Shown piece after piece: positions 25,300-57,144 of a stretch of DNA of 64,000 nt. The position numbers were made by a program, and so were the translations under genes. Under the pieces are notes generated by a model. The model did no database searches and was not told the DNA's origin. It saw only the letters and a list, made by a program, of their open reading frames with translations. Origin of the DNA: Catellatospora coxensis (GTDB lineage Bacteria; Actinomycetota; Actinomycetes; Mycobacteriales; Micromonosporaceae); assembly GCF_016862635.1 (NCBI RefSeq), contig NZ_BONI01000043.1, positions 1 through 64,000 on the forward strand. The letters run 5' to 3'. Each line of letters opens with the position of its first letter. Positions within the stretch are counted from its first letter, which is position 1.

Positions 25300-25305
25300 T
25301 CCCCC

Positions 25306-32481: not shown

Positions 32482-32580
32482 CCGGTCACCTGCTTGACGC
32501 CGCCCACGGCGGTGCCCGCAGAATCATTGCCGACCATGGGGCGACGCTAGCCATGCGTTGACCAGCCCGTCAAGGGGCTT

Positions 32581-32597
32581 GTTTCTCACAGCGGATC
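32581..32597. promoter_or_regulatory. IclR-type operator G (weaker)
   Basis: GTTTCTCACAGCGGATC matches operator F (GGTTCGCACAGTGGAAC) at 13 of 17 positions. It lies between the divergent CitE-like and membrane-protein genes. Confidence 0.4.
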
Positions 32598-32614
32598 AGT
32601 GTTTCCATAGCGCG

Positions 32615-36994: not shown

Positions 36995-37100
36995 GGGTCC
37001 TCCTGTGAGCGCGGACGGTCGCCAGTGTAGATCCAGCCGCGCCCGGCGCGCAGAGGCCGCACGGGCGTTGACAGGTGCGCGACCAAGTCGTTACCTTCTC

Positions 37101-37126
37101 GGCAACAGCGTTTCCTAATGCGAAAC
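37101..37126. promoter_or_regulatory. IclR-type operator H
   Basis: GGCAACAGC followed by GTTTCCTAATGCGAAAC, a perfect GTTTC-N7-GAAAC palindrome. It lines up with operator C (GGAAACAGC-GTTTC). Located between the IclR gene and its divergent operon. Confidence 0.65.
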
Positions 37127-37140
37127 GGAGGGCGGTGGCG

Positions 37141-39437: not shown

Positions 39438-40909
39438 GCGCCCGGCCCGAGGCGGTCGCCGACCTCGTCGACGGCGCGTGGGCGGCCTGCGCCGCCCCGC
39501 TCGGCTTCACCCTGCAGGACCCGGCCACCGGCGAGCCCGTCGGCGCGGCCGTCGGCAGCGACCCCGCGCGGGTCGAGGCCGCCGTCGCCGCGGCGACCGC
39601 GGTGCACGACTCCGGTGCCTGGTCGGGCCTGCCCGCCGCCGAACGCGCCGACGTGCTCGACGCGGTCGCGGCCCGGGTCGAGGCCGTCGGCGGCGACATC
39701 GCGGCCGTCGAGTCCTTCGCGACCGGGGTGCCGATCTCGCAGACCATGCCGCTGTCGGTCATCCTCGGCGGCGCGTTCCGGCTGGCCGCGATGCAGCTGC
39801 GCGAGGGCTGGCTGAGCAGCGCGATGCCGCGCGAGGACGGGCGGCTCGCCCACGTCGACCGGCTGCCCTGGGGACCGGCGGCCTGCCTGGTGCCGTGGAA
39901 CGCGCCCGCGCCGATGGCCGCGCACAAGGCCGCCAACGCGCTCGCGGCCGGCTGCCCCACGATCGTCAAACCCAGCGAGTACGCCCCGTACGGCACGCAG
40001 CTGCTGGCGCGGGCGGTGCACGAGGCGCTGGCCGGGGCAGGCCTGCCCGGCGGGCTGTTCCAGCTCGCGCACGGCGCCGCGGGCACCGGGGCGCTGCTGG
40101 TCGGCGACCCGCGGGTGCGGGCCGTGTCGTTCACCGGCGGGCTGGCCGGGGGCCGGGCCGTCGCGGCGGCGTGCGCGTACGACATCAAGCCTGTGCAGCT
40201 CGAACTCGGCGGCAACAACCCGCTGGTCGTGCTGCCCGACGCGGACACCGCCACGGTCGCCCGCGCCGCCGCCGACCTGCTGACCACCCTCAACGGGCAG
40301 TGGTGCCGGGCGCTTGGCCGGCTGATCCTGCCCGCCGGGCGGGCCGCGGAGATCCTCGACGCGACCCTGGAGCGGCTGGCCGCGCTGCGGGTCGGCGCAC
40401 CCCTCGACCCGGACACCGACTTCGGGCCGCTGGTCCACTCCGGACACCGGGACCAGATCATCGCCGCCCGCGACGCGCTCGTCGGGCACGGCGGCACCGC
40501 GCACGCGCCGCTGACCGTGCCGGAACAGGGCAACTACCTCAGCCCGACGCTGGTCACCGGTGTCGACCCGGCGCACACCACGCACGAGATCTTCGGGCCG
40601 GTCGCGGCGGTGCACACCTACACGAGCATCGACGAGGCGGTGGCGCTGGCCAACGGGACGCCGTACGGGCTGGAGGCGTACGTGACCGGCCCGGACGAGG
40701 AGGCCGCGCTGGCCGTCGCGCGGCGGCTCCGCGCGGGCGAGGTGAAGGTCAACGGGTCCAGCGTGATGAGCCTGCACCTGTTCACCCCGCGCCCGGCCTG
40801 GGGGCTGTCCGGGTACTCGGAGGAGGGCACGGCCGAGACGCTGCGCTTCTTCACCAACCCGCGGGTCGTCGGCGTCGAGGGCGGCTTCGCGCTGCACGGC
40901 CGCCCGTGA
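39434..40909 (+). CDS. Aldehyde dehydrogenase family protein
   Basis: 491 residues. Motifs: PWGPAACLVPWNAPAPMAA, SFTGGLAGGRAVA, active-site Glu in LELGGNNP, and catalytic Cys in NGQWCRALGR (about 286), EIFGPVAAVHTY. The GxWCR form in place of GQ.C.A is unusual. NAD(P)-dependent oxidation of an aldehyde to acid. GTGA overlap with the upstream gene and again with the next one. Confidence 0.9.
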   Translation: MSARPEAVADLVDGAWAACAAPLGFTLQDPATGEPVGAAVGSDPARVEAAVAAATAVHDSGAWSGLPAAERADVLDAVAARVEAVGGDIAAVESFATGVPISQTMPLSVILGGAFRLAAMQLREGWLSSAMPREDGRLAHVDRLPWGPAACLVPWNAPAPMAAHKAANALAAGCPTIVKPSEYAPYGTQLLARAVHEALAGAGLPGGLFQLAHGAAGTGALLVGDPRVRAVSFTGGLAGGRAVAAACAYDIKPVQLELGGNNPLVVLPDADTATVARAAADLLTTLNGQWCRALGRLILPAGRAAEILDATLERLAALRVGAPLDPDTDFGPLVHSGHRDQIIAARDALVGHGGTAHAPLTVPEQGNYLSPTLVTGVDPAHTTHEIFGPVAAVHTYTSIDEAVALANGTPYGLEAYVTGPDEEAALAVARRLRAGEVKVNGSSVMSLHLFTPRPAWGLSGYSEEGTAETLRFFTNPRVVGVEGGFALHGRP

Positions 40910-41936: not shown

Positions 41937-41966
41937 ATGACCGGACAGAGGCAGGAGAGGGTATGA
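41937..41966 (+). CDS. Possible nine-codon leader micro-ORF
   Basis: ATG at 41937 codes MTGQRQERV and its stop overlaps the monooxygenase start (ATGA). Too short to be sure; similar bridges occur at 43108, 54823 and 3894. Confidence 0.25.
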   Translation: MTGQRQERV

Positions 41967-43111
41967 GCAGGATCGTCGTGGCCGGGGCGGGGCCGGTCGG
42001 GTTGACCGCCGCGCTGGCGCTGGCACGGCAGGGCGTCGCGGTGACCGTGCTGGAGGCCGGTGACGAGCTGGCCGCCGAGTCGCGGGCGTCGACGTTCCAC
42101 CCGCCGACCCTGGAGATGCTGGCCGAGCTGGGCGTCGTGGACGCGCTGCTGGCCCGGGGCCTGGTCGCGCCGACGTTCGCCTACCGCGACCGCGCGCATG
42201 GCCACGTCGCCACGCTCGACCTGGGCGTGCTCGCCCGGGACACGCCGTACCCGTACCGGGTGCAGTGCGAGCAGTCGAAGCTCACCCCGATCCTGCGGGC
42301 CGAGGTCGAGGCCGCCGGTGGCGTGATCCGGTTCGGGTGGCCGGTCGCCGGCGTCGACCAGGTCGCCGACGGCGTCGTGGTACGCGCCGCCGACGGCCGG
42401 ACCGAACGCGGCGACTGGCTGATCGCCGCCGACGGCGCGCACTCCGCGGTACGCCGGTCGCTGGGCGTCGAGTTCGCGGGCATCACCTACCCGGAGCGTT
42501 TCCTGGTCGCGTCCACCGACGAGGACCTGCCCGGACTGCTCGACGACCTGGCCGAGGTCAACTACGTCTTCGACCCGGTCGACTGGTCGGTGCTGCTGCA
42601 CACCCCGGACCACTGGCGGGTGCTGCTGCCGACGCCCGACGGCACGCCCGACGGCGACGAGCTGGACCGGCTCGACGGGCGGCTGCGGCAGGTCGCCGAC
42701 CCGGGCCGGCCGTGGCAGGTCGCGCACGCCAGCATCTACCGCGTACACCAGCGGGTGGCCGAGACGTTCCAGGTCGGACGGGCGCTGCTCGCCGGGGACG
42801 CGGCGCACGTCAACAACCCGCTCGGCGGGCTGGGCATGAACTCGGGCATCCACGACGCGGTGGCGTACGCCCGCGCGCTGGTCACCGGCGACGGCGCGGT
42901 CCGGCTGGCCGCGGCCCAGCGGCGGCGCATCGCCCTGGAGTACGTGCAGACCGTCTCCCACCAGAACTACCAGCGCCTCACCGCCACCGACCCGGCGGCC
43001 CGCGCGGCGTACCTGGCCGAGATCCGCGCCACCGCGGCCGACCCGGTCCGCGCCCGCGCCCACCTCCTGCGCGCCTGCATGATCTCGTCCCTGCGCCCGG
43101 TGCCCGCATGA
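41963..43111 (+). CDS. FAD-dependent aromatic-type monooxygenase
   Basis: 382 residues. Group A flavin monooxygenase motifs: VAGAGPVGLTAALALARQG (6-24), DG motif in LIAADGAHSAVRRSLG (about 154-169), and GD motif in ALLAGDAAHVNNPLGGLGMNSGIHDA (about 274-299). Hydroxylates or epoxidises an aromatic or conjugated ring using NAD(P)H and oxygen. AGGAGAGGG precedes the ATG. It may oxidise a pyrrole or bilin-type substrate, given the regulon; this is inference. Confidence 0.88.
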   Translation: MSRIVVAGAGPVGLTAALALARQGVAVTVLEAGDELAAESRASTFHPPTLEMLAELGVVDALLARGLVAPTFAYRDRAHGHVATLDLGVLARDTPYPYRVQCEQSKLTPILRAEVEAAGGVIRFGWPVAGVDQVADGVVVRAADGRTERGDWLIAADGAHSAVRRSLGVEFAGITYPERFLVASTDEDLPGLLDDLAEVNYVFDPVDWSVLLHTPDHWRVLLPTPDGTPDGDELDRLDGRLRQVADPGRPWQVAHASIYRVHQRVAETFQVGRALLAGDAAHVNNPLGGLGMNSGIHDAVAYARALVTGDGAVRLAAAQRRRIALEYVQTVSHQNYQRLTATDPAARAAYLAEIRATAADPVRARAHLLRACMISSLRPVPA

Positions 43112-43167
43112 GCAGGCGCAGCGGCCCCGCCGGGAAGCCCGCGAAGCGTCGCAGGGAGAGGGCATGA
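43108..43167 (+). CDS. Micro-ORF bridging monooxygenase and dehydrogenase genes
   Basis: 19 codons (MSRRSGPAGKPAKRRRERA) with ATGA overlaps at both ends. It is very basic and low complexity. It probably keeps ribosomes on the message between the two genes. Confidence 0.35.
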   Translation: MSRRSGPAGKPAKRRRERA

Positions 43168-44612
43168 GCGAGCGGATCACGCGGTACAACCCGGCGCGGG
43201 TGTACGAGCTGGTCGGCACCGTGCCCGCTGCGGACCCCGGCCGGGTCGACGCGGTGGTGCGGGCCGCCGGCGCGGCGCAGCGGGACTGGGCACGGGTCGA
43301 GGTCGCCGACCGGGTGGCCGCGCTGCGGGCCGCCGCCGACGCGGTCGAGCCGCACCTGCCGACGCTGGCCGAGCTGCTGGCCCGGGAGTCGGGCAAGGTG
43401 CTGGCCGACTGCCGGGGTGAGCTCGGGTTCGCGCTGACCTTCCTGCGCTGGGTGGCCGAGCACGCCCCGCGGGTGCTCGCGGACACGGCGCTGGACGACG
43501 CGGCGGGCCGGCTGCTGCTGCGCCGCCGCCCGTACGGCGTGGTCGCGGCGATCACCCCGTGGAACGCGCCGATCATCCTGTCCTTCCTGAAGATCGCCCC
43601 GGCGCTGGCCGCGGGCAACACGGTGGTGGTGAAGCCGTCGCCGCTGGCCCCGCTGGCGATCGACCGTACGGTGCGGCTGCTGGCGTCGGCGCTGCCCGCG
43701 GCGGTGCTGCAGGTGCTGCACGGCGACGCGGCGGCGGGCGCGGCCCTGGTCGGGCACCCGCTGGTCGGCAAGGTCGCGTTCACCGGCGGCGCGGCGACGG
43801 CCCGGGTGGTCGCCGCGGCGGCCGCGGCGCAGACCACGCCGACCGTGCTGGAGCTGGGCGGCAACGATCCGGTGCTGCTGCTCGGCGACGCCGACCTGTC
43901 CCCGGAGCCGATGCGACGGCTGGTCATGGCCTCGTTCGCGACCAGCGGGCAGGTGTGCATGGCCGCGAAACGGCTGTACGTGCCCGAGACCCGCCACGAC
44001 GAGTTCGTCGCCGCGTACCGGGCGGCCGCCGCCGACGTGCTGTGCCTGGGCGACCCGCTCGCCGCCGGGGTCAGCATGGGCCCGGTGGTGACCGCCGAGG
44101 CCGCGACCCGGATCACGGGGCTGGTCGAGGACGCGGTGGCGCGCGGCGGGCGGGCGCTGCCGGTGGGCCGCGTCGACCCGGCCGCCGACCTGCGGGCCGG
44201 GCACTTCGTCACGCCGACGCTGGTGACCGGCGTGCCCGAGGACGCGCCGCTGGTCGCCGAGGAGCAGTTCGGGCCGACCGTGCCGGTGCTGCCCTACCGC
44301 GACGAGGCCGGCCTGGTGGCCCGCGCCAACGCCGGTGAGCTGGGATTGGGCGCGTCGGTGTGGTCGGCCGACGAGGAGCGGGCGTTCGCGGTGGCGCGGC
44401 GGCTGGAGGCCGGCTTCGTCTTCGTCAACACGCACAACCGCACCGGCATGTCGCTGCGCGCCCCGTTCGGCGGCGTGAAGCGCTCCGGGTACGGCCGCGA
44501 GTACGGCGAGGAGGGCATCGCCGAGTACGCGCAGACGTGTGTGGTGCACGCGCCGGCCGCGTTCCGGGCGGGCGGCGCGGGCGCGGCGGCGAACGCGTAC
44601 CCGGCGTCGTGA
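43164..44612 (+). CDS. Aldehyde dehydrogenase family protein (benzaldehyde/vanillin type)
   Basis: 482 residues. Motifs: PYGVVAAITPWNAPIILS, FTGGAATARVV, Glu in LELGGNDP, catalytic Cys in TSGQVCMAAKR (about 272), EEQFGPTVPVLPY, and C-terminal APFGGVKRSGYGREYGEEGI. Oxidises an aldehyde with NAD(P)+. Third aldehyde dehydrogenase of the window; its GG.KRSG.GRE tail differs from the other two. It is the last gene of the operon led by the flavin reductase fusion. Confidence 0.9.
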   Translation: MSERITRYNPARVYELVGTVPAADPGRVDAVVRAAGAAQRDWARVEVADRVAALRAAADAVEPHLPTLAELLARESGKVLADCRGELGFALTFLRWVAEHAPRVLADTALDDAAGRLLLRRRPYGVVAAITPWNAPIILSFLKIAPALAAGNTVVVKPSPLAPLAIDRTVRLLASALPAAVLQVLHGDAAAGAALVGHPLVGKVAFTGGAATARVVAAAAAAQTTPTVLELGGNDPVLLLGDADLSPEPMRRLVMASFATSGQVCMAAKRLYVPETRHDEFVAAYRAAAADVLCLGDPLAAGVSMGPVVTAEAATRITGLVEDAVARGGRALPVGRVDPAADLRAGHFVTPTLVTGVPEDAPLVAEEQFGPTVPVLPYRDEAGLVARANAGELGLGASVWSADEERAFAVARRLEAGFVFVNTHNRTGMSLRAPFGGVKRSGYGREYGEEGIAEYAQTCVVHAPAAFRAGGAGAAANAYPAS

Positions 44613-48165: not shown

Positions 48166-48447
48166 TCAGCTGCTGAAGTCGACGACGACCCGGGCGGCCA
48201 GCCGCGGGCGCAGCCACCGCGCGAGCTCCAGGTGCGCCGGGTGCTCCTGGTATCCGCGCAGGTCGTCCGCGTCCAGGTGGGTCGTGACCAGGCACAGGTG
48301 CGCCGAGACCGGGGTGTGCAGCTCGTCCAGGTTCACCTGGAGCGTCCGGACCTGCGGAACGGCCCCGACCAGCCCTTCCAAAAGATCCTTCGCCTTGGCA
48401 GCATCGTCTGCGTCGGTGAACGTCATCAGCACTACGTGAGAAAGCAT
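48166..48447 (-). CDS. Stress-responsive Dabb family protein
   Basis: 93 residues, a small ferredoxin-like dimeric alpha/beta barrel: MLSHVVLMTFTD at the start, VRTLQVNLDEL, and YQEHPAHLELARWLRP with the characteristic HP.H. Such proteins may bind small hydrophobic ligands or act as small oxygenases/decarboxylases; EthD and tetracenomycin polyketide cyclases are relatives. The ATG at 48447 has better spacing to GGAGG than the GTG at 48450. It is divergent from the nitrilase operon across operator C. Confidence 0.85.
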   Translation of the reverse strand: MLSHVVLMTFTDADDAAKAKDLLEGLVGAVPQVRTLQVNLDELHTPVSAHLCLVTTHLDADDLRGYQEHPAHLELARWLRPRLAARVVVDFSS

Positions 48448-48498
48448 CACGACCTCCGGTCAACCACTGTTGCAAACGCCCCCGCGAGTGTAGTTTCG

Positions 48499-48535: not shown

Positions 48536-50191
48536 ATGGCTCCAACACGGGTTGCCGCGGTGCAGCTCGCGGCGTCGCAGGACGTCGAGGCCAACCTCGC
48601 CGCCTGCCTGCGCCTGATCGACGAGGCCGCGGCCCAGGGCGCGCAGCTGATCGTCCTGCCCGAGTTCTGCAACCACCTGTCCTACTACACCGACCGGGCC
48701 GAGGCGCACCGCATCGCCACCCGGCCCGGTGACCCGTTCCTGACCGCGGTCGCCGAGCGCGCCCGCAAGCACCGGGCGTACGTGAAGATCAACGTCACGC
48801 ACGCGCACCCGGACGGGCGCACCGGCGGCACCAACTTCATGTTCGGGCCGGACGGCACGGTGCTCGGCCAGTGCGACAAGCAGACCCTGATGGGCGCGGA
48901 GAACGACCACCTCGACCCGGCTGGCGAGGTCGGCCCGGTGCTCGACACCCCGCTCGGCCGGCTCGGCATGTACGCCTGCATGGAGGGCGTCATCAACGAG
49001 GTGGCCCGCGGGCTGGCCCTGCGCGGCGCGCAGGTGCTGCTCAACAGCCTCAACTCGTTCGCCACCGACGAGGCGAGCCTGCACATCCCGGTCCGCGCGG
49101 CCGAGAACAAGGTATGGGTCGTCGCCGCGAACAAGGTCGGCCCGCTGCTGCCCGAGGAGCACCTGCCGCGGCTGAGCGCCGCGCTCGGCGTACCCGCCGA
49201 ATGGCTGCACGGAGCCGGGGAGAGCCAGATCGTCGCCCCCGACGGCACCGTGGTCGCCAAGGGCCCCCGCACCGGCGAGGCCGTCGTGATCGCCGACATC
49301 GACCCGTCCCTGGCCGACGACAAGCGCCGCCCCGACGGCACCGACATCTTCGCCGCCCGCCGCCCGGAGCTGTACTCCCCGATCGCCGCCCCACCCCACG
49401 GCCGCCGCCACGCCCCCGGCGCGGCCACGCTGCCCGTGGCGATCGTCCGCGGCGACACCGCCACCGTGGTACGCGAGACCGCCCGCGCCGCCGCCGCCGG
49501 CGCCCGCCTCATCGTCACCACCGAAACCGACCCGGCCCTGCTCGCCGCCGCCCTCGACGGCACCGGCGCCCACGCCGTCACCGCAACCCCGACTGGCCCG
49601 GTCCTCGTCGACGCCAACGGCCAGCTCGCCCACCAACCCGTCCTCCACCCCCAAGATCCCGACGATCTTGCGCGAACTGTTGCCGATTCGCCGGATTCAC
49701 CCGTGTCATCCCCACAGTCCACGCAAGATCGTCGCGGTGAGGGGGCGGCGGTGCGGGTGGTGGAGATGGCTTGGGGGCGGTTGGTGATGGTGGCGGGGGA
49801 GGATTCGATCTTTCCGGAGGTGTTCCGGTTGGCGGCGCTTGCCGACGCTGATGTGGTGGCGGTGCCGTTCTCGGCGGTGGAGCAGTGGGAGTTGGGTCTC
49901 GGGCTGCCTGAGCGGGCGGCGGAGAACCGGCTCAACGTGATTGCCGCTGCGCCGGTTGAGCAGGACAGTGCGGTGTTCGCGCTGTCGTCGGACTTCACGT
50001 TGTGGACCGCTTGGCAGGGCCCGTTCACGGGGCGGATCAGCCATCCGGTGATCACCACTGTGCCCGCCGGACAGGTGTCCGGGCGGGCTGACGTCGCTCC
50101 GGCACAGGCCGCCAACCGGCAGGTGTCGCGGCAGACGGACCTCGTCGACGGCCGCCCCTGGCGGCTCGTGCAAGCCCTCACAGAAAGGTAG
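48536..50191 (+). CDS. Carbon-nitrogen hydrolase with a degenerate second nitrilase-like domain
   Basis: 551 residues, about twice the normal nitrilase length. Domain 1 (1-285) has the full Glu43/Lys115/Cys148 triad (LPEFC, CDKQTL, YACMEG) and cleaves amide or nitrile C-N bonds. Domain 2 (about 300-551) has nitrilase-like strands (RLIVTTETDP, WGRLVMVAGED, AAENRLNVIAAAPV) but no catalytic Cys. Between its halves the frame runs through a 75-bp palindrome (49660-49734, residues about 375-400). First gene of the chlorophyll-type operon; it could hydrolyse the half-amide from an imide. A G-richer base composition begins after the palindrome. Confidence 0.85.
   Translation: MAPTRVAAVQLAASQDVEANLAACLRLIDEAAAQGAQLIVLPEFCNHLSYYTDRAEAHRIATRPGDPFLTAVAERARKHRAYVKINVTHAHPDGRTGGTNFMFGPDGTVLGQCDKQTLMGAENDHLDPAGEVGPVLDTPLGRLGMYACMEGVINEVARGLALRGAQVLLNSLNSFATDEASLHIPVRAAENKVWVVAANKVGPLLPEEHLPRLSAALGVPAEWLHGAGESQIVAPDGTVVAKGPRTGEAVVIADIDPSLADDKRRPDGTDIFAARRPELYSPIAAPPHGRRHAPGAATLPVAIVRGDTATVVRETARAAAAGARLIVTTETDPALLAAALDGTGAHAVTATPTGPVLVDANGQLAHQPVLHPQDPDDLARTVADSPDSPVSSPQSTQDRRGEGAAVRVVEMAWGRLVMVAGEDSIFPEVFRLAALADADVVAVPFSAVEQWELGLGLPERAAENRLNVIAAAPVEQDSAVFALSSDFTLWTAWQGPFTGRISHPVITTVPAGQVSGRADVAPAQAANRQVSRQTDLVDGRPWRLVQALTER
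49660..49734. repeat. Palindromic element inside the nitrilase gene
   Basis: CGACGATCTTGCGCGAACTGT (49660-49680, written as arm) pairs with 49714-49734; the outer 13 bases CGACGATCTTGCG / CGCAAGATCGTCG are perfect. It is 75 bp, exactly 25 codons, and in frame. Confidence 0.75.
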
Positions 50192-50198
50192 ACCGACC

Positions 50199-50999
50199 GT
50201 GGCCGAGACCCTGCGGCACGTCGAGGACATGGTGGACAACTCCCCCGTCGTCGACGTGCACGAGACCTTCCACCTGTACCAGCAACTGCTCGCCGAGCTG
50301 AAGGCGAAGATCGACGCCCGGTTCGAGCTGCACCGGGACGAGTCCACGCTGGAGCTGGAGACGTACGGGCAGTACCCGGACGGCCCGGGCGGCTCGCTGG
50401 CCGCGTACAGCGGGCCGGAGGTCGACTGGATGGTGCACTCCTGGCTGGGCAACCCGTCGGCGAGCTTCGCCAACCTGCACCTGACCGTGTGGCTCGGCCC
50501 GCAGGTCAAGGTGCCGCACCTGGGCCTGGCCCTGCTGGTGTGGCCGGAGGGCTGGTTCTACCTCGACTCCGTGCCCCGGGTGAACATGGTCGAGGACGGC
50601 GAGTACTACGACAGCTACTACGCCCCGCTCGACGCCGACTGGCTGGCCCACCGCGCCGACCCCGAGTTCGAGTACTTCGTCAGCCGGGCCGGCTTCATCC
50701 GGGCCAGCCTGAGCCCGACGGCGTACTGCTACTCGTTCGGCCGCAGCGAGCGCAACATCGACATCGTCCGCAAGCTGACCCACGAGCACGTGGACCGGTG
50801 GCTGCGCTGGGTCGACGAGGCTCCGCCGGTGCCGGAGGAGGAGCGGGCCGCGCTCGCTGAGACCGACCTGCGGATCCGGCGCAACATCGCCGAGCGCGAC
50901 CCGGCCAACGTGATGGGTGTGCGCTTCTTCGGCCAGGAGACCACGGACAAGCTGGTCCGCGGCCTGTGGGGCGGCGACCGGAAGTCGGCCCGGCCGTGA
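50199..50999 (+). CDS. Red chlorophyll catabolite reductase (RCCR)-like protein
   Basis: 266 residues. From memory of plant RCCR (ACD2) I see a collinear match: EVDWMVHSWLG (75-84), a strand pair ending KVPHLGLALLVW, YYDSYYAPLD, FIRASLSPTAY (167-176), and near the C-terminus a helix with D.RIRRNIAERD and FGQETTDKLVRGLWGG. Plant RCCR reduces the linear tetrapyrrole red chlorophyll catabolite with ferredoxin electrons. One acidic residue of the plant active site is not evident in PHLGLAL, so chemistry may differ. GAAAGG precedes the GTG; GTGA overlap with the next gene. Function is inferred; the family call is fairly firm. Confidence 0.75.
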   Translation: MAETLRHVEDMVDNSPVVDVHETFHLYQQLLAELKAKIDARFELHRDESTLELETYGQYPDGPGGSLAAYSGPEVDWMVHSWLGNPSASFANLHLTVWLGPQVKVPHLGLALLVWPEGWFYLDSVPRVNMVEDGEYYDSYYAPLDADWLAHRADPEFEYFVSRAGFIRASLSPTAYCYSFGRSERNIDIVRKLTHEHVDRWLRWVDEAPPVPEEERAALAETDLRIRRNIAERDPANVMGVRFFGQETTDKLVRGLWGGDRKSARP

Positions 51000-51967
51000 C
51001 GACGGTGATCCGCTCCGTCTGGTGGGCGGCGACGATCCCGGGCCACGAGGCCCCGTTCGACACCGCCCACCTGCGCGTCTACTACCCGGCCCGGCCGGAC
51101 GGCTCGGACCGCGAGCGCCTGTCGGGCGTGATGGCCGCCGACGCGGACGGCGCGCCGTACCCGGTGGCGGTGATCGTTTCCGGGGTGAACGTGGGCCAGG
51201 AGGCGTACCGGTGGCTGGCCGAGCGGCTGGCCGCGCAGGGTGTCGTCGCGGTGACCTATGACTGGGTGGGCACGCTGTTCGGGGGCCTGCACGGCATCAC
51301 GCCGGGCGTGGACCTCGACGCGGCCCGGCCCGACGGTTACGGCAAGCGCCCGACGACGCCGTCGCTGCGGCCGGTGCTCGACGCCCTCGCCGCGATGACC
51401 GGGCCGGTCGCCGGGCTGCTCGACCTGAACAAGGTCGCCCTGATCGGGCACTCGGCGGGCGGCACCGTGGCGCTCCAGTCGGCGAGCTTCGTGCCCGAGG
51501 TGAAGGCCGTCGCGACGTACGGCGCGCACACCATGGTCGCGACGATGCTGGGCTGGCCGGCGGGGACCGTGCTGCCGGCCCAGGCCGACTGCCCGGTGCT
51601 GCTGGTCGCGGGCACCAACGACGGGGTCATCAACGGCTCGGCGGACCGCTACGGCGAGGACGCGGCCACCCGCCGCGACCCGATCAGCCGCACCTTCGAC
51701 GAGGCGCTGCCCGACCGGGGCGGCGACAACGCGCTGGTCCGGCTCGCCGGGGCGAACCACTTCGCGATCGTGCACCCGGTCGACCACACCGCCGCGCGGG
51801 CGTTCCTCGACCAGCCCGCCGACGGCGACCCCGCCGCGCACCGGGAACTGCTGGCCGACCTGCTCGGCACGTTCTGCCGGATGCACCTGACCGGCGACCA
51901 GGCGTCGTATACCGAATGGGACAAACTCGCCGGTCACGACGGCGTCGCGTCCATCCAGCGGAGGTAA
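50996..51967 (+). CDS. Chlorophyllase/PAF-acetylhydrolase-like alpha/beta hydrolase
   Basis: 323 residues, no signal peptide, so cytosolic. Strand YPVAVIVSGVNVG (oxyanion region), helix YRWLAERLAAQGVVAVTYDW, nucleophile elbow ALIGHSAGG (about 152-160), acid in LLVAGTNDG and catalytic His in GANHFAIVHP. This order fits the chlorophyllase (PF07224-like) and PAF-acetylhydrolase branches. In a chlorophyll pathway it would remove phytol from a chlorophyll derivative. Coupled to the RCCR-like gene. Chlorophyllase activity is inferred from family and neighbours. Confidence 0.75.
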   Translation: MTTVIRSVWWAATIPGHEAPFDTAHLRVYYPARPDGSDRERLSGVMAADADGAPYPVAVIVSGVNVGQEAYRWLAERLAAQGVVAVTYDWVGTLFGGLHGITPGVDLDAARPDGYGKRPTTPSLRPVLDALAAMTGPVAGLLDLNKVALIGHSAGGTVALQSASFVPEVKAVATYGAHTMVATMLGWPAGTVLPAQADCPVLLVAGTNDGVINGSADRYGEDAATRRDPISRTFDEALPDRGGDNALVRLAGANHFAIVHPVDHTAARAFLDQPADGDPAAHRELLADLLGTFCRMHLTGDQASYTEWDKLAGHDGVASIQRR

Positions 51968-51970
51968 GCC

Positions 51971-53173
51971 ATGTTGAAGAACTTCTGGTACGCGGTCGAG
52001 TTCTCCGACCGGGTCACCACCAAGCCGGCCCGGATCACCGTGCTCGGCCAGCACCTGGCCCTCTACCGCACGCCGAAGGGCCGCCCCGTCGCGCTGAGCG
52101 ACCTGTGCGTGCACCGGGGCGCGGCGCTGTCGGGCGGCTGGACCAAGGACGGCTGCCTCGTCTGCCCGTACCACGGCTGGGAGTACGACGCCGACGGCCA
52201 GGTCACGAAGATCCCGGCGAACCTGCCCGGCCGGGGCATCCCGAAGAAGGCCCGCGTCGACTCGTACCCGGTGCAGGAGAAGTACGGCTTCGTCTGGGTG
52301 TTCATGGGCGACCTGCCCGAGTCCGAACGCCCGCCGATCCCGGTGTGGCCGGAGTTCGACGACCTGAAGGAGAACGGCGGCCGCTTCCGGGCGGTGACCG
52401 GCGAGTTCCTGTGGAAGGCGAACTACGAGCGCATCCTGGAGAACGGCTGCGACATCGCGCACGCGCCGTTCGTGCACGCGGGCGCGTTCGGCAACCCGGA
52501 GCGCCCGGAGGTCGCCGAGTACGAGCTGGAGACCCCCGACGAGTGGTCGGCGTTCGCCACGGTGGACCTGTACCCGCCGCGGCCGAAGGGCATCTGGGCG
52601 GCTCTCAACCGCAACAAGGGCGACCTGAGCAACCGCCCGCCGGTGCGCACCTCGGCCGGCTGGATGCTGCCCAACATGATCAAGCTGCACGTGCGGCTGC
52701 CGATCGGCGAGCTGATCATCTACGACACCAACATCCCGATCGACGAGACGACCACGCTGGTCAAGTGGGTCGCGCTGCGCACCTTCTTCACCGGCAAGTG
52801 GGCCGACAAGAACGCGATCAACCGCACCTTGAAGATCTTCTACGAGGACGCGGAGGTCGTGAACAAGGTCCGGCCCGAGCTGCTGCCCTTCGACCTGGGC
52901 GCGGAGCTGCACATCAAGAGCGACCTGATCGCGGTCCACTACCGCCGCCGCCGCCAGGAGCTGGCCGAGAAGGGCTGGCTGCTGTCCGAGGAGGACAGCA
53001 TCACCGGCGACGTGCCGCGCCGCACCGCGACCGTGATCGCCTCCCCGGCCCGCCGGGAGAACCCCGAGCTGGCCCGCGCCTGGGTGCACAAGGCCCGGGG
53101 CGAGCACCCGACCGTCCAGGCCGCATGGGACGCGGCCGCCGCGGCCGAGTCCGAATCCACCCCTGAGGAGTGA
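51971..53173 (+). CDS. Rieske non-haem iron oxygenase, pheophorbide a oxygenase-like candidate
   Basis: 400 residues. Rieske cluster ligands Cys46-x-His48 and Cys65-x2-His68 (CVHRG, CPYHGW); mononuclear iron site ENGCDIAHAPFVHAG (Asn158, Asp161, His164, His169). The C-terminal half is mostly beta with a long helical end and no obvious membrane helix, unlike plant PaO. Rieske oxygenases of this class use ferredoxin electrons and oxygen to cut or demethylate rings. Next to RCCR-, NOL- and chlorophyllase-like genes it is the natural candidate for opening the porphyrin ring. GCGGAGG precedes the ATG. Confidence 0.85.
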   Translation: MLKNFWYAVEFSDRVTTKPARITVLGQHLALYRTPKGRPVALSDLCVHRGAALSGGWTKDGCLVCPYHGWEYDADGQVTKIPANLPGRGIPKKARVDSYPVQEKYGFVWVFMGDLPESERPPIPVWPEFDDLKENGGRFRAVTGEFLWKANYERILENGCDIAHAPFVHAGAFGNPERPEVAEYELETPDEWSAFATVDLYPPRPKGIWAALNRNKGDLSNRPPVRTSAGWMLPNMIKLHVRLPIGELIIYDTNIPIDETTTLVKWVALRTFFTGKWADKNAINRTLKIFYEDAEVVNKVRPELLPFDLGAELHIKSDLIAVHYRRRRQELAEKGWLLSEEDSITGDVPRRTATVIASPARRENPELARAWVHKARGEHPTVQAAWDAAAAAESESTPEE

Positions 53174-53175
53174 CC

Positions 53176-53883
53176 GTGAGCCTGCCCGCCGACCTGTGCG
53201 AGCGCACCCTGCAACGAATCCTCGCCCGGCACCCCGACCTGGTCGCGCAGGACACCCCGCTGGCCGAGCTGACCAGCCCGATGTCGCCCGCCCCGGTCGG
53301 CTCGGTGCGCGTCTTCCGCGGCGAGGCGGTGGCCAAGGTCGTGTACGTCGGCCTGGTCGTCCCGATGATCCACCTGGACAGCCACATGATCTTCGCGTTC
53401 ACACCCGAGGACTCGGCCGTCCCGCACTTCACCCTGGACTCGGTGTACGGCGGCTCCTACCACGCCTTCCACCTGGACCTGATCCCGCGCGCCGACCTGG
53501 CCGCGAACCTGCCCTACCTGGACGCGGCGTTCCACCCGCTGACCCCGGTCTTCGAGGCGGCCTCGGCGACCGAGGGCCTGTCCCCGGCGGCGATCGGCCC
53601 GCGCCAGCGCGCCATCATGTCGCCGTGGATGCTGGTCAACCGGGCCACCGAGGACGCCTTCGCGAGTATCGACACCTACGTGAACGCCTACGCCGACCAC
53701 TGGTCGACGCTGGTGGAGAAGGGTCTGTCCGCCCCGGACGGCGCCGACCTGGCCGCCCGGGACGCGGCGGTGCGCGCGAACATCTTCAGCCGTGACGTCG
53801 ACCCGGTCTGGGCGCAGGTGTCCCGGCTGCTCGGCGACGGGACCACCGACGCGATCCGCGCCGAGCTGGTGGCCAATGGCTGA
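53176..53883 (+). CDS. Ferredoxin-dependent bilin reductase-fold protein
   Basis: 235 residues. The pattern is that of bilin reductases/RCCR: MIHLDSHMIFAFT, VPHFTLDSVYGGSYHAFHLDLIP (82-104; Asp88 falls where bilin reductases have their catalytic Asp, P.F..D), a helix with YLDAAFHPL, MSPWMLVNRATEDAF and a C-terminal helix with ARDAAVRANIFSRDVD. So the operon has two proteins of this superfamily; this one keeps the catalytic Asp, the other does not show all acidic residues. It may reduce a linear tetrapyrrole. GTG 53176 has a GGAG at proper spacing; 53170 overlaps the previous stop. Confidence 0.7.
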   Translation: MSLPADLCERTLQRILARHPDLVAQDTPLAELTSPMSPAPVGSVRVFRGEAVAKVVYVGLVVPMIHLDSHMIFAFTPEDSAVPHFTLDSVYGGSYHAFHLDLIPRADLAANLPYLDAAFHPLTPVFEAASATEGLSPAAIGPRQRAIMSPWMLVNRATEDAFASIDTYVNAYADHWSTLVEKGLSAPDGADLAARDAAVRANIFSRDVDPVWAQVSRLLGDGTTDAIRAELVANG

Positions 53884-54826
53884 GCCCAGCGAGTGGCAGA
53901 AGCGCATCACGGGTGAGTGGCACGGCCGGCCGTCGCTGTTCGACGCCACCGGCACCTGGTGCGGGTACGAGGACATCCGGCGCTCGTCGGTGTTCGAGAA
54001 CGGCGTGACGACGTACTACATGGACGGCGGGCTCACCGGGGGCGGGCCGCTGGCCGGGCAGTTCCGGCTGGGCGCGCCGTTCGCGTTCGGGGTCGAGGAC
54101 GCCGACGACGACCGGGTGTACACCGGGCCGGACTTCTACGGCACCGGCCAGCCCTACGGCTCGTTCGTCGACTCGCACTACTACGGCCCCGGCTGGCAGG
54201 TCGACCTGAACACCTGGAACCAGATCCTGCCCGACGGGCAGACCCAGGTGTACTCGTCCGTGCTCTACCAGGGCTGGTCGGTCGTCGGCTGCTTCAACGG
54301 CGTCTACACCCGCAGCACCGACCACGACGACAACCCCGCCACCCAGGCCCGGGTCACCGAGTTCCTGGCCGCCGAGACGCGGCGCGGCCCGGTCCCGCAC
54401 ATCATGCCCACCAAACGATCCGGGGCGTACGCGGGCAGCTGCGAACTCTGGGGCGCCGACCAGAAGCCGCGCGGCACGGTCGACGTGCGCATCGCTCTGG
54501 AGCCGGTCGACCTGCTGCACACCCGCCGCACCCTGACCTGGTCCGGGGCCCTGAACCGCAGCGCCACGGCCTCGGCCCGGCGCGACGGCAACCGGCTGTT
54601 CCACGAGGGCCCCGACGCCTGGGGCAACGCGGTCGCCTTCGGCCGCGCCGCCTTCGGCTCCCTGCACTTCACCGACGTCACCAAGGTGAAGTACCGCGAA
54701 TTCATGATCGACGCCGAGCCCGGCATGTCCGCGGGCAAGCGCCTCGCCGTCGTCTACGAGATCTTCCAGGGCAACGTGCTCGACAGCGTCCTGCACGGCC
54801 TCCTGGAGTGGGAGGACGCCGCATGA
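53876..54826 (+). CDS. Calycin/lipocalin-like protein (DUF3598-like)
   Basis: 316 residues. Starts WQKRITGEWHGRPSLFDATGTW, a GxWxG lipocalin-type entry, followed by many short strands (YEDIRRSSVFENG, SSVLYQGWSVVGCFNGVYT, GSCELWG, TRRTLTWSGALN) and YEIFQGNVLDSVL at the end. This pattern resembles DUF3598, a calycin group known mainly from cyanobacteria and plants and related to phycobilin lyases. It overlaps the bilin-reductase-like gene by 8 bp, so a tetrapyrrole carrier or lyase role is plausible. The family assignment is tentative. Confidence 0.55.
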   Translation: MAEPSEWQKRITGEWHGRPSLFDATGTWCGYEDIRRSSVFENGVTTYYMDGGLTGGGPLAGQFRLGAPFAFGVEDADDDRVYTGPDFYGTGQPYGSFVDSHYYGPGWQVDLNTWNQILPDGQTQVYSSVLYQGWSVVGCFNGVYTRSTDHDDNPATQARVTEFLAAETRRGPVPHIMPTKRSGAYAGSCELWGADQKPRGTVDVRIALEPVDLLHTRRTLTWSGALNRSATASARRDGNRLFHEGPDAWGNAVAFGRAAFGSLHFTDVTKVKYREFMIDAEPGMSAGKRLAVVYEIFQGNVLDSVLHGLLEWEDAA

Positions 54827-54891
54827 ACGAGCGCAGCGAGCGAATCATGAGGCCTGCCGAAGTCATGCCGACGCCGCAGGCGGCGGCATGA
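54823..54891 (+). CDS. MNERSERI micro-ORF bridging two operon genes
   Basis: 22 codons (MNERSERIMRPAEVMPTPQ...) with ATGA overlaps at both ends, to the calycin-like gene and to the SDR gene. The first 24 bases match the micro-ORF at 3894-3965 (minus strand) except at one base. Confidence 0.4.
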   Translation: MNERSERIMRPAEVMPTPQAAA

Positions 54892-55664
54892 CCGCCAAGG
54901 TTGTCGTGGTAACCGGCGGGACCAGGGGCATCGGGCTCGGCCTGGTGCGGGAGCTGGCCGCACGGGGCGCGCAGGTCGTCTACTGCGGACGGTCCGTCGA
55001 CTCGGTGAAGCGGGCCGGCGAGCAGGTCCCGGCCGCGTACGGCGTGGTCGCCGACGTCACCGACCGCGAAGCGGTGCAGCACCTGTGGGACGCGGCCGTC
55101 GAGCGGCACGGGCGGGTCGACATCTGGATCAACAACGCGGGCATGTCCCCGGCCCGGCACAAGCTGTGGGAGCTGGACCCCGAGGCGCTCGACGCCACGG
55201 TGGACCTGAACCTGCGCGGCGTGCTGCACGCCAGTGCCGTGGTGCTGGCCGGGATGCAGGCCCAGGGCGCCGGCGCGCTGTGGAACATGGAGGGCTTCGG
55301 GTCCAACGGCATGCGCCGCCCCGGGCTGACCGTGTACGGCGCGACCAAGCGGGCCGTCACGTACACCACGGACAGCCTGGCCAAGGAGGTGGACGGCACC
55401 GGGGTGACCGTGCACCACCTGTCCCCCGGCATGGTCGTCACCGACCTGCTGACGTACGACTACACCCCGGAAGAACTGGCGCAGGCGAAGAAGATCTTCA
55501 ACATCCTGGCGGACCGGGTGGAGACCGTCACCCCGTGGCTGGCCGGCAAGGTGCTGGCCGGGGCGAAGAACGGGGCCCGGGTGGCGTGGCTGACCCAGGG
55601 CAAGGCGTTCTGGCGCTTCCTCACCGCGTTCCGCAGGCGCGACGTGTTCGGGGAGGACGCGTGA
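54888..55664 (+). CDS. NOL/NYC1-like short-chain dehydrogenase (chlorophyll b reductase homologue)
   Basis: 258 residues. Classical SDR sites: TGGTRGIG (9-16), NNAG (82-85), Ser139, Tyr150-x3-Lys154. Beyond these it carries the signatures of plant chlorophyll b reductases NOL/NYC1: VDIWINNAG, WNMEGFGSNG (plant: FN.DGAGSDG), YGATKRAV, VHHLSPGMVVTDLL and FNILAD..E.V. Those enzymes reduce the C7 formyl of chlorophyll b. Together with the RCCR-like gene this is the strongest sign that the operon handles chlorophyll. The protein lacks transit peptide and membrane segments. GTGA overlap with the next gene. Confidence 0.82.
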   Translation: MTAKVVVVTGGTRGIGLGLVRELAARGAQVVYCGRSVDSVKRAGEQVPAAYGVVADVTDREAVQHLWDAAVERHGRVDIWINNAGMSPARHKLWELDPEALDATVDLNLRGVLHASAVVLAGMQAQGAGALWNMEGFGSNGMRRPGLTVYGATKRAVTYTTDSLAKEVDGTGVTVHHLSPGMVVTDLLTYDYTPEELAQAKKIFNILADRVETVTPWLAGKVLAGAKNGARVAWLTQGKAFWRFLTAFRRRDVFGEDA

Positions 55665-56323
55665 ACACCAACGACTACCCGGTGATCATGGCGCTGGAGG
55701 ACTACGTCCCCACGCTGCTGGCACTGGCCGGGTTCTGGCTGCTCGGCGGGGCGTCCGCCGCGATCGACCGGCGGGCCGCCGTCGCGGGGCGGCTCGGGGG
55801 CGTGCTGATCGGGCTGGGCGGGGTGGCCAAGTCCACCTGGAAGCTCATCCTTTCCGCGTTCGGCCACGACGTGCGCTGGCTGGAGCAGTCGCTGTTCCCG
55901 CTGATGGCGGCCGGCGCGCTGCTGGTGCTGTGGTCGCTGCACACGACACTGCGCGGGCGGCGCGCGCCGTGGTGGCCGTACGCCCTGGTGGGTGTGGGGG
56001 TCGCGGGGGCCGCGGTCGCCCTCGGCAGCGTGCAGCCCGCGTTCATCGCGGCCACCACCGGCGTCACCCTGATCAGCGTGCTCGGCGCGGTGCTGGCCGG
56101 CCGCCGCCGGGCCTGGGTCGCGGTGGTGCTCTTCGTGCTCGGCATCGTCGCCGTCACGTCGCTGGTGCCGCTGCGCAACCACCCGCAGCACGAGACGCTG
56201 GCCTTCCAGTGGCTGGAGCAGGGCACCAACACCCTCGCCCAGGCCGTCTTCCTGACCGCCGCCCTGCTCACCGTCCGCGCGTCCCGCAGCGCGGCGGTCC
56301 GGCCCGTGGGGGCAGTGGCATGA
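55661..56323 (+). CDS. Multi-pass membrane protein, paralogue of the gene at 35253
   Basis: 220 residues and about seven hydrophobic segments. Shared motifs with the 35253 product: LEDYVPTLLALAGFWLL, GGVAKSTWKL, WLEQSLFPLMAAG, GSVQPAFI, ISVLGAVL and LAFQWLEQGTNTLAQ; it lacks the hydrophilic tail. Coupled on both sides (GTGA and ATGA). No known family recognised; being inside the operon, it may transport or sense a pathway intermediate. Confidence 0.75.
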   Translation: MNTNDYPVIMALEDYVPTLLALAGFWLLGGASAAIDRRAAVAGRLGGVLIGLGGVAKSTWKLILSAFGHDVRWLEQSLFPLMAAGALLVLWSLHTTLRGRRAPWWPYALVGVGVAGAAVALGSVQPAFIAATTGVTLISVLGAVLAGRRRAWVAVVLFVLGIVAVTSLVPLRNHPQHETLAFQWLEQGTNTLAQAVFLTAALLTVRASRSAAVRPVGAVA

Positions 56324-57063
56324 CCGACGCACTGGGGTGGCGGCGCAAGTTCGGGGTCATCGCGCCGTCCACGAACACGATCGTCGAGCCGGACTTCTAC
56401 TCGATGACGGTGCCCGGGGTGACCGCGCACTTCTCCCGTATCCACATCCGCAACCAGGACCTGTCCGACGACGCGAACTTCGAGCACCTGCTGGTGCAGA
56501 TCCGCGACGAGATCGGGGCGGCCTGCGAGCGGGTGCTGACCTGCGAGCCCGACTACATGGTCATGGGCATGTCGGCGGAGACGTTCTGGGGCGGGGTCGA
56601 GGGCAACCGGGAGTTCGTCCGCCAGATCAAGGCGATCACCGGACTGGAGGTCGCCACGGGGGCCGAGGCCTGCGAGCGGGCCCTGAAGATCTACGGCGCG
56701 CGGCGCATCGGCGTGGTCACGCCGTACCAGCCGGTCGGCGACCAGAACGTGGTGAAGTTCTTCAGCGAGATCGGCTTCGAGGTCACCGCGATCGAGGGGC
56801 TGAAGTGCCCGACGGCGGTGGCCATCGCGCACGTGACCGAGGACGAGCTGCGCGACGCGATCCGCAAGGTCGACGGGCCGGACGTGGACGCGATCGTGCA
56901 GTGCGGGACGAACCTGTCCATGGTGCGGCTGGCCGACGAGGCGGAGCGCTGGCTCGGCAAGCCGGTCATCGCGATCAACGCGGCGACCTGGTGGATGGCG
57001 CTGCGCGACAACGGCATCGAGGACAAGGTGTACGGCGCGGGCTCCCTGCTCCGCGAGCACTGA
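56320..57063 (+). CDS. Maleate isomerase/arylmalonate decarboxylase-family protein
   Basis: 247 residues. Asp/Glu racemase superfamily: FGVIAPSTNTIVEPDF (11-26), MGMSAETFWGG (82-92), GVVTPYQPVG and catalytic Cys195 in VQCGTNLSM. Maleate isomerases normally also carry a Cys near the first loop; here that position is Met84-Ser85, so the enzyme has one cysteine like arylmalonate decarboxylase. It could isomerise or decarboxylate a substituted maleate. Last gene of the nine-gene operon, and ends in a hairpin. Confidence 0.8.
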   Translation: MTDALGWRRKFGVIAPSTNTIVEPDFYSMTVPGVTAHFSRIHIRNQDLSDDANFEHLLVQIRDEIGAACERVLTCEPDYMVMGMSAETFWGGVEGNREFVRQIKAITGLEVATGAEACERALKIYGARRIGVVTPYQPVGDQNVVKFFSEIGFEVTAIEGLKCPTAVAIAHVTEDELRDAIRKVDGPDVDAIVQCGTNLSMVRLADEAERWLGKPVIAINAATWWMALRDNGIEDKVYGAGSLLREH

Positions 57064-57078: not shown

Positions 57079-57144
57079 AATCGACGTTGGCCTATCACAT
57101 CGAGTTCGACTCACGAAAACTCGATGTGATAGGCCAACGTCTAT
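57079..57144. repeat. Palindromic repeat family 4, copy b
   Basis: Left arm TCGACGTTGGCCTATCACAT from 57081 continues to CGAGTT; the right arm ends at GGCCAACGTCTA near 57143. Arms are about 26 bp with one mismatch. Between convergent genes, so probably also a terminator. Confidence 0.75.

What the first reader, a model, noticed from the sequence alone, without database searches (positions are those of the whole stretch)
48536..57063. Bacterial operon with homologues of the plant chlorophyll-breakdown enzymes
Seen: nine same-strand genes with mostly ATGA/GTGA overlaps include an SDR with NOL/NYC1 signatures (54888), a protein collinear with plant RCCR (50199), a chlorophyllase-like hydrolase (50996), a Rieske oxygenase with intact ligands (51971), a second bilin-reductase-fold protein (53176) and a calycin-like protein (53876). 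Known: in plants NYC1/NOL, chlorophyllase/pheophytinase, PaO and RCCR act in this order. Inference: a heterotrophic actinobacterium can degrade chlorophyll or its litter products by a PaO/phyllobilin-like route encoded as one operon. I know of no such operon described in this form, but I could not search.
Basis: partly seen in the sequence, partly recalled or inferred. Interest (0 to 1): 0.95.

Follow-up and report, generated by a model that had tools for sequence, protein, structure and literature searches.

The report
Bacterial chlorophyll-breakdown-like gene cluster
A soil-type actinobacterium carries a conserved gene cluster that includes relatives of plant enzymes that dismantle chlorophyll in autumn leaves, next to genes that look able to break the fragments down to food, which suggests an undescribed bacterial route for recycling chlorophyll-type pigments.

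Summary
In detail: nine co-directional genes lie at 48536-57063. The first reductase (50199) is a true relative of plant red chlorophyll catabolite reductase (RCCR): Pfam 50.5 bits (cut-off 24.9), best PDB match, and joined to Arabidopsis RCCR in a tree (UFBoot 99). The second (53176) has a modelled RCCR/bilin-reductase fold. The SDR is its genome's best match to a chlorophyll b reductase (NYC1) fragment that I recalled from memory. The calycin-like protein folds like DUF3598/BFA1.

Weaker points: the Rieske protein is VanA-type, without PaO domain or CxxC; the hydrolase misses the chlorophyllase cut-off; RCCR1 has Ala at plant Glu154, where the second reductase keeps an acid.

The finding is larger than described. 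Rieske and second-reductase genes accompany RCCR1 in 55 of 56 near-relative loci. The four-gene core (RCCR1, Rieske, RCCR2, calycin) is in 7 of 15 distant loci, all Actinomycetota; other phyla show parts. Upstream lie flavin monooxygenases, aldehyde dehydrogenases, ring-opening hydrolases, CoA-transferases, PrpD and CitE: a supercluster of about 36 kb that looks like catabolism of a tetrapyrrole, most likely a chlorophyll derivative. The substrate is inferred, not shown.

The parts
48166..48450 (-). Dabb (dimeric alpha/beta barrel) small protein, divergent from the operon
   Evidence: Pfam Dabb 58.2 bits; present in 45 of 56 near-relative loci
48536..50191 (+). nit: nitrilase-superfamily amidase, two domains; the first has E-K-C type motifs, the second looks degenerate (read by eye)
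   Evidence: Pfam CN_hydrolase, 2 stretches; motifs
50199..50999 (+). RCCR1: red chlorophyll catabolite reductase relative; Ala111 at plant Glu154, Asp234 at the helix acid
50996..51967 (+). alpha/beta hydrolase (GHSAGG), probable esterase
   Evidence: Pfam Hydrolase_4, PETase and DLH over cut-off; Chlorophyllase under it; GHSxGG in 58 of 58 relatives
51971..53173 (+). VanA-type Rieske non-haem iron oxygenase
   Evidence: Pfam Rieske and VanA_C; best PDB matches SxtDIOX, SxtT, DdmC; each ligand motif in 63 of 64
53176..53883 (+). RCCR2: second RCCR/bilin-reductase-fold protein; Asp90 at plant Glu154 (residue numbers count from the GTG at 53170)
53876..54826 (+). two-barrel calycin-like protein, DUF3598/BFA1 fold
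   Evidence: model pLDDT 91.9; Foldseek 2o62_A E 3.1e-9, 5yvf_A E 6.9e-9
54888..55664 (+). SDR with NYC1/NOL-like C-terminal half
55661..56323 (+). membrane-type protein, no family over cut-off; 51% identical paralogue at about 35178-36047
56320..57063 (+). Amdase/EutA/maleate-isomerase superfamily enzyme with Cys195
   Evidence: Pfam Amdase 77.9 bits; PDB maleate isomerase 2xed and arylmalonate decarboxylase; CGTN/CATN motif in 55 of 57
57083..57139 (+). long hairpin, probable terminator
36185..36994 (-). IclR-type regulator
37075..38127 (+). flavin reductase
38151..39434 (+). acyl-CoA-dehydrogenase-type flavoenzyme, probable two-component monooxygenase
39512..40909 (+). aldehyde dehydrogenase 1 (start not fixed)
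41963..43111 (+). FAD_binding_3 monooxygenase
43164..44612 (+). aldehyde dehydrogenase 2
20591..21784 (-). CoA-transferase family III, first
21772..22734 (+). HMG-CoA-lyase-like enzyme
23801..25228 (-). amidohydrolase
25291..26502 (+). CoA-transferase family III, second
26577..27368 (+). Putative cyclase family hydrolase; start not fixed
27365..28852 (+). MmgE/PrpD family
31543..32481 (-). CitE-like HpcH/HpaI lyase
32558..33322 (+). membrane-type protein conserved in the cluster (start not fixed)

Best explanation
A catabolic supercluster (about 20.6-57.1 kb) that lets a heterotrophic actinobacterium degrade a tetrapyrrole pigment, most likely a chlorophyll derivative from plant or algal debris. 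Proposed order: the hydrolase removes an ester (phytyl or methyl) and the NYC1-like SDR changes a carbonyl group; the VanA-type Rieske oxygenase opens the macrocycle or oxidises the open chain; RCCR2 (acid kept at both places) and RCCR1 (one acid kept) reduce the bilin at different double bonds, perhaps as partners, with the calycin-like protein binding the bilin; flavin monooxygenases and aldehyde dehydrogenases cut and oxidise the pieces; nitrilase-type amidase, amidohydrolase and cyclase-type hydrolase open lactam or maleimide rings; Amdase-like enzyme, CoA-transferases, PrpD, HMGL and CitE turn substituted dicarboxylates into central metabolites. Shown by computation: gene families, fold of RCCR2 and calycin, conserved linkage. 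Inferred: substrate, order, and each reaction.
For: RCCR1: Pfam RCC_reductase in 28 of 28 scanned; its profile hits in the PDB at E <= 0.1 are RCCR (4.6e-19), PebB, HY2 and one weak unrelated chain; tree groups it with Arabidopsis RCCR, UFBoot 99. RCCR2 fold. The operon SDR is the best match to a recalled NYC1 fragment in 5 of 5 operon genomes. In 56 near loci: Rieske 55, RCCR2 55, calycin 54, SDR 54, Amdase 54, nit 54. Degradation genes within 10 kb upstream in near loci: ALDH1 50, FMO 48, ALDH2 51, ACDH type 38 of 56. CoA-transferase, cyclase, PrpD and CitE lie within 10 kb of RCCR1 in 5-7 of 15 distant loci, nearly all distant Actinomycetota; ACDH, ALDH and FMO also in Anaerolineales or Deltaproteobacteria loci. 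The whole arrangement is held in G003, G007, G008 and G019, and, save for the HMGL-like gene, compactly in Micromonospora rubida G435.
Against: No biochemical evidence. Rieske is not PaO type. RCCR1 has Ala at Glu154 in 28 of 28. No Staygreen (Mg-dechelatase) in 22 genomes, 20 of them reached through operon loci, though nothing rang in the controls either. Some genomes have RCCR1 without Rieske nearby: Actinoplanes couchii L062 and the ten cyanobacterial regions. In Anabaena a haem oxygenase gene lies about 3 kb from RCCR1, which fits haem-derived bilins there. L055 and L060 lack the hydrolase next door. NYC1-like SDRs occur in 13 other genomes of the phylum sample that have no RCC_reductase. 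I did not search for ferredoxins; the proteins scanned include none.
Confidence: 0.54

Rival explanations
1. The cluster degrades haem-derived bilins (biliverdin, bilirubin) or phycobilins rather than chlorophyll; the ring is opened elsewhere by haem oxygenase and the Rieske enzyme acts on the open chain.
For: RCCR and bilin reductases share fold and family ties; the own genome has a haem oxygenase on another contig; in Anabaena one of three haem oxygenase genes lies about 3 kb from RCCR1; plant RCCR acts on a bilin.
Against: Haem oxygenase found in only 5 of 12 operon genomes searched (several are MAGs that may be incomplete); with the Anabaena protein as query, a haem oxygenase showed up beside RCCR1 only in Anabaena among 106 stretches searched, the window included (a distant one could be missed); the NYC1-like SDR and ester hydrolase have no clear role in breakdown of haem bilins.
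Confidence: 0.24
2. A catabolic cluster for another nitrogen heterocycle (alkaloid, maleimide, linear pyrrole natural product) in which the RCCR fold was recruited to a different substrate.
For: Most neighbours are of generic families (ALDH, CoA-transferase, PrpD, CitE, amidohydrolase); RCCR1 lacks the Glu154 acid; the best PDB relatives of the Rieske protein act on small molecules.
Against: Two RCCR-fold proteins with a NYC1-like SDR and a calycin in one conserved operon is much coincidence for a non-tetrapyrrole substrate.
Confidence: 0.17
3. A biosynthetic or modification cluster for a tetrapyrrole-like natural product.
For: Actinomycete setting; Rieske, SDR and FAD enzymes are common in such clusters (general knowledge).
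Against: Among the 30 window proteins scanned there is no synthase of a known natural-product type, while lyases, CoA-transferases and an IclR regulator point to catabolism.
Confidence: 0.05

Closest known systems
Plant PaO/phyllobilin pathway (NYC1/NOL, PPH or chlorophyllase, PaO, RCCR)
   Same: RCCR relative, NYC1-like SDR, a Rieske oxygenase and an ester-type hydrolase together
   Different: Rieske is VanA type without PaO domain; hydrolase under chlorophyllase cut-off; two RCCR-fold proteins; downstream degradation genes; the host is a bacterium
Arabidopsis RCCR (ACD2), PDB 2zxk/3aga
   Same: family, fold, helix-acid region
   Different: Glu154 is Ala in RCCR1; the Phe218 position is Leu in the window protein; RCCR2 keeps an Asp at 154 but is a separate clade
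Ferredoxin-dependent bilin reductases (PebA, PebB, PebS, HY2, PcyA) and bacterial pre-PcyA (PMC10151467, passages read)
   Same: fold; helix Asp in a DP motif
   Different: RCCR1 groups with RCCR, not with them; pre-PcyA clusters are described with haem oxygenase, V4R and globin genes or B12-binding and globin genes
Bacterial Staygreen (Mg-dechelatase) homologues (PMC8531759, passages read)
   Same: precedent for a plant chlorophyll-breakdown enzyme with bacterial relatives of unknown role
   Different: no Staygreen found here (controls silent)
DUF3598 (Npun_R4044) and BFA1
   Same: two-barrel calycin fold of the 53876 protein
   Different: no Pfam family match for the window protein; function not comparable

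Membership tests
RCCR (RCC_reductase) | Pfam PF06405 gathering score | tested here: met
   RCCR1 50.5 bits, cut-off 24.9; 28 of 28 relatives match at E <= 0.1, best 6.9e-23
RCCR (RCC_reductase) | groups with plant RCCR apart from bilin reductases | tested here: met
   UFBoot 99 for AtRCCR + RCCR1 against RCCR2 + PebB, HY2, PcyA; 63 rows (one a duplicate), one plant RCCR
RCCR (RCC_reductase) | acid at Glu154 (its role is recalled from the RCCR literature, not read) | tested here: not met
   Ala111 in 28 of 28
RCCR (RCC_reductase) | reduces RCC to pFCC | not testable with these tools
   needs an enzyme assay
RCCR/bilin-reductase superfamily, second protein | fold | tested here: met
   top nine PDB matches are RCCR, best E 3.4e-11, TMq 0.78
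RCCR/bilin-reductase superfamily, second protein | Pfam RCC_reductase gathering score | tested here: not met
   14.0 bits, cut-off 24.9, in the window protein; 14 of 25 relatives match at E <= 0.1, best 3.5e-5
RCCR/bilin-reductase superfamily, second protein | acid at the Glu154 position | tested here: met
   Asp90 in 25 of 25, aligned with Glu154
Pheophorbide a oxygenase (PaO) | Rieske and mononuclear iron ligands | tested here: met
   window motifs; each in 63 of 64 relatives
Pheophorbide a oxygenase (PaO) | PaO domain PF08417 | tested here: not met
   no match at E <= 1; 0 of 11 non-cyanobacterial operon genomes, while Anabaena and two control genomes rang
Pheophorbide a oxygenase (PaO) | C-terminal CxxC motif (recalled) | tested here: not met
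   0 of 66 after residue 200
Chlorophyllase | Pfam PF07224 gathering score | tested here: not met
   15.8 bits, cut-off 26
NYC1/NOL chlorophyll b reductase | specific similarity beyond general SDRs | tested here: inconclusive
   best hit in 5 of 5 genomes (own 2.9e-13, next 1.3e-4); 14 of 396 phylum genomes have one at 1e-5; but the plant fragment was recalled and no tree was made
Arylmalonate decarboxylase/maleate isomerase superfamily | Pfam Amdase gathering score | tested here: met
   77.9 bits, cut-off 25.9
Maleate cis-trans isomerase | two active-site Cys (recalled) | tested here: not met
   by eye in the alignment: no Cys near the first place, second Cys kept
EutA or AMDase equivalog | NCBIfam cut-off | tested here: not met
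   83.8 of 318 and 70.7 of 225 bits

The most novel reading that the evidence does not exclude
Non-photosynthetic bacteria possess a complete aerobic pathway that mineralises chlorophyll (or phyllobilins), built around true RCCR relatives, a NYC1-like reductase and a non-PaO Rieske ring-opener, and such bacterial genes are cousins or sources of the plant RCCR and NYC1 genes.
Probability: 0.41. Interest if true: 0.95.

Novelty: new variant of a known kind. Interest (0 to 1): 0.86.

Why it matters
Very large amounts of chlorophyll are made and lost each year (general knowledge), yet my paper searches (listings of an open-licence library) showed no bacterial gene cluster that carries it, or the plant phyllobilins, into central metabolism. 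This cluster names candidate enzymes for each stage, many in named actinobacterial strains, so the question can be tested directly. It also bears on where plants got RCCR: as has been proposed for Staygreen (PMC8531759), it may have bacterial roots.

Tried and rejected
Staygreen (PF12638) as a marker of chlorophyll use: 0 of 22 genomes, but no control rang, so it shows little. PaO domain: found in Anabaena only, of 12 genomes. Structural second look by VIA-align: library not on the machine. I first took RCCR Asp291 to align with Asp223 (RCCR1) and Asp198 (RCCR2) and wrote so in a note; the count showed that this Asp is residue 280, and the alignments put the helix acid near Asp234 and Asp211 (uncertain by a column or two). 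The count 'RCCR2 in 12 of 15 distant loci' includes L086 and L091, where the match is RCCR1 itself; the true number is 10. L112 in the tree is a duplicate of L083. The automatic ORF picks chose wrong frames in some loci, so cluster counts there are rough; c14, c15, c20, c21, c23 and c25 looked like shadow frames and were not used.

Maleate isomerase as the name of the last gene was considered and dropped (first Cys missing). A biosynthetic cluster was considered and judged unlikely.
Full report
Observation. The nine genes exist as described, with small differences: 4 or 5 of 8 junctions overlap, the second reductase most likely starts at 53176, and a 61-base gap before the SDR holds a short repeat. 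A strong hairpin follows the operon. The window lies in a Catellatospora-type genome: the same-genus genome G001 has a contig of the same length, 128388, as the named Catellatospora methionotrophica contig.

RCCR1 (50199). Pfam RCC_reductase 50.5 bits against a cut-off of 24.9; Fe_bilin_red 21.1 bits, under its cut-off of 31. A single-sequence search of the PDB gave Arabidopsis RCCR first, E 9.3e-8. A profile of 28 proteins (27 of the 71 loci and the window) gave RCCR at 4.6e-19, PebB at 6.4e-10, HY2 at 0.0017 and one weak unrelated chain at 0.026. In a 63-row tree (one row a duplicate, one plant RCCR, three bilin reductases) Arabidopsis RCCR joins RCCR1 with UFBoot 99; support for RCCR1 as a clade without it is only 52. 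Plant Glu154 is Ala111 in 28 of 28; the helix acid is Asp234. The F218V mutant chain in the PDB output let me check the residue numbering.

RCCR2 (53176). Sequence alone is weak: 14.0 bits, 14 of 25 relatives match at E <= 0.1, and the profile hits RCCR at 0.0016 and HY2 at 0.053. The model is confident (pLDDT 96.0, pTM 0.93). Of 45 PDB matches at E <= 0.001, 43 are RCCR or bilin reductases, the top nine RCCR (2zxk_B, E 3.4e-11); the other two are chains of the Ycf2/Orf2971-FtsHi motor complex. It is about 25% identical to RCCR1 (24-27%), so the two are paralogues. Asp90 stands at Glu154 in 25 of 25. It forms its own clade (UFBoot 100). RCCR1 itself was not modelled: the two prediction jobs went to RCCR2 and the calycin.

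Rieske, hydrolase, SDR, calycin. The Rieske protein has Rieske and VanA_C domains and intact ligands; its best PDB matches are SxtDIOX, SxtT and DdmC; no PaO domain at E <= 1. The hydrolase passes Hydrolase_4, PETase and DLH but not Chlorophyllase. The SDR looks general to NCBIfam, and the 60 PDB matches shown of 200 end by residue 209. A 123-residue NYC1 fragment recalled from memory aligns to residues 133-257 at 34%, and this SDR is its best match in the genome, 2.9e-13 against 1.3e-4 for the next, a frame with a stop; by coordinates the operon SDR is also the best match in the four other genomes tested. In 396 genomes of the phylum, 14 have such a match at 1e-5, and of these only the own genome also has RCC_reductase, so the two do not always travel together. 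The calycin-like model (pLDDT 91.9) matches the DUF3598 protein Npun_R4044 (3.1e-9) and BFA1 (6.9e-9); one of 25 relatives touches DUF3598_N at 0.086, and a profile search of the PDB gave nothing.

Spread. RCC_reductase is in all 11 same-genus genomes searched, the own included, in 1 of 14 other genomes of the family and in 0 of 16 others of the order (12 of 41), and in 3 of 396 of the phylum sample, the own included. One scan of named genomes with RCCR1 gave 71 loci: 56 near (Micromonosporaceae, Actinomadura, Streptosporangium, Nonomuraea, Streptomyces and others) and 15 distant (seven Actinomycetota MAGs by title, two Anaerolineales, Anabaena, a proteobacterial, an Oligoflexaceae, two Deltaproteobacteria and one unplaced MAG). 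Near loci hold nit 54, hydrolase 53, Rieske 55, RCCR2 55, calycin 54, SDR 54, membrane protein 49, Amdase 54, Dabb 45 of 56. The main exception is Actinoplanes couchii L062, with only nit, RCCR1 and a weak SDR; L064 is a short contig; in L054, L057 and L098 some genes are on the other strand. Distant loci hold Rieske 9 (plus a piece at a contig end in L083), RCCR2 10 after removing two self-matches, calycin 9, nit 6, hydrolase 5, Amdase 3, SDR 2 of 15; several contigs end close by. The four-gene core RCCR1-Rieske-RCCR2-calycin is in 7 of 15, all Actinomycetota; a Deltaproteobacteria locus (L095) and the unplaced L093 have RCCR1, Rieske and RCCR2; others have less. In the phylum of Anabaena 10 of 291 genomes have RCC_reductase; of the ten regions read, none shows the Rieske gene, 5 have the nitrilase-like and 6 the aldehyde dehydrogenase gene of Anabaena.

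Wider cluster. Upstream in the window lie an IclR regulator, flavin reductase, acyl-CoA-dehydrogenase-type flavoenzyme, two aldehyde dehydrogenases and an FAD monooxygenase (36-45 kb), and further up two CoA-transferases, an HMGL-like enzyme, an amidohydrolase, a cyclase-type hydrolase, PrpD, CitE and a membrane-type protein (20-33 kb). At 33% identity over 55% of the length or better, near loci (10 kb of flank, some less) hold ALDH1 50, ALDH2 51, FMO 48 and the ACDH-type gene 38 of 56; distant loci hold CoA-transferase 2 in 7 (39-60%), cyclase in 5 (53-58%), PrpD in 6 (49-51%) and CitE in 6 (36-49%) of 15, all Actinomycetota but for L093; ACDH 4, ALDH1 5, ALDH2 5 and FMO 4 of 15 include Anaerolineales or Deltaproteobacteria loci. 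The whole arrangement was found in G003, G007, G008 and G019 and, without the HMGL-like gene and more compactly, in Micromonospora rubida (G435), where a second NYC1-like SDR lies within it; in Streptosporangium canum (G437) the far-upstream block was not found in the stretch read. This linkage is the main reason to read the operon as one part of a degradation pathway.

Mechanism. A plant-like order (de-esterification, carbonyl change, ring opening, bilin reduction) followed by oxidative cutting to monopyrroles and maleimides, hydrolysis of the cyclic amides, and CoA-dependent lysis of substituted dicarboxylates would use nearly every conserved gene. No step has been shown. Hydrolases with signal-like N-termini adjoin the cluster in some Actinomadura, Streptosporangium, Streptomyces and other loci (clusters c17, 12 loci, and c22, 9 loci; a few N-termini seen by eye), which would suit release of phytol outside the cell; this is speculation. 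A ferredoxin-reductase-like reading frame near 30.9-31.5 kb was noticed by eye and recurs in G003, not in the 71 loci (where the frame tested was a guess). Against the chlorophyll reading stands a haem oxygenase gene about 3 kb from RCCR1 in Anabaena; no other stretch of 106 showed one with that query.

What is known. Rockwell and others use RCCRs and related sequences as the outgroup of bilin reductases, place Ca. Schekmanbacteria sequences in it, and describe pre-PcyA in heterotrophs with other gene neighbours (PMC10151467, passages). Bacterial Staygreen homologues dechelate Mg, and their physiological relevance is called unknown (PMC8531759, passages). A review describes RCCR as cofactor-free and ferredoxin-driven (PMC4950323, passages). 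PMC11879140 (passages) names two Asp of HY2 as proton donors. PMC12746152 (passage) only cites pheophorbide a oxygenase in its reference list. Nine searches of the open library (listings seen) showed no bacterial cluster of this kind; subscription papers and preprints were not searched.

Noticed in passing
window 54829-54851 and 3937-3959: A short repeat (GAGCGCAGCGAGCGAATC...) sits in the gap before the SDR and, with 2 mismatches, at 3.9 kb; L028, L030 and L031 (Catellatospora) have a gap of similar size there, L029 and others none.
   Followed up: partly
window 57083-57139: Very long, nearly perfect inverted repeat after the operon, z -11.5.
   Followed up: partly
window about 35178-36047 and 55661-56323: Two paralogous membrane-type proteins, 51% identical, in the same supercluster; no Pfam match for the second at E <= 0.01.
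   Followed up: partly
PDB 8xqw_H and 8xks_P: A chain of the chloroplast Ycf2/Orf2971-FtsHi motor complex matches the RCCR2 model, so that complex may hold a bilin-reductase-like fold.
   Followed up: no
L082, L083, L084, L087, L095: A second calycin-like protein (25% like the first over 134 residues) and a DUF3891 protein travel with RCCR1.
   Followed up: no
L113-L122: Some cyanobacteria carry an RCCR1 relative, often beside nitrilase-like and aldehyde dehydrogenase genes but without the Rieske gene.
   Followed up: partly
L122 13276-13884 (also L086): In Anabaena a haem oxygenase gene lies about 3 kb from the RCCR1 gene.
   Followed up: partly
window 29232-31190 and 33405-36122 (-): Two proteins with ricin-type lectin domains lie inside the supercluster region; they look unrelated to it.
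   Followed up: no
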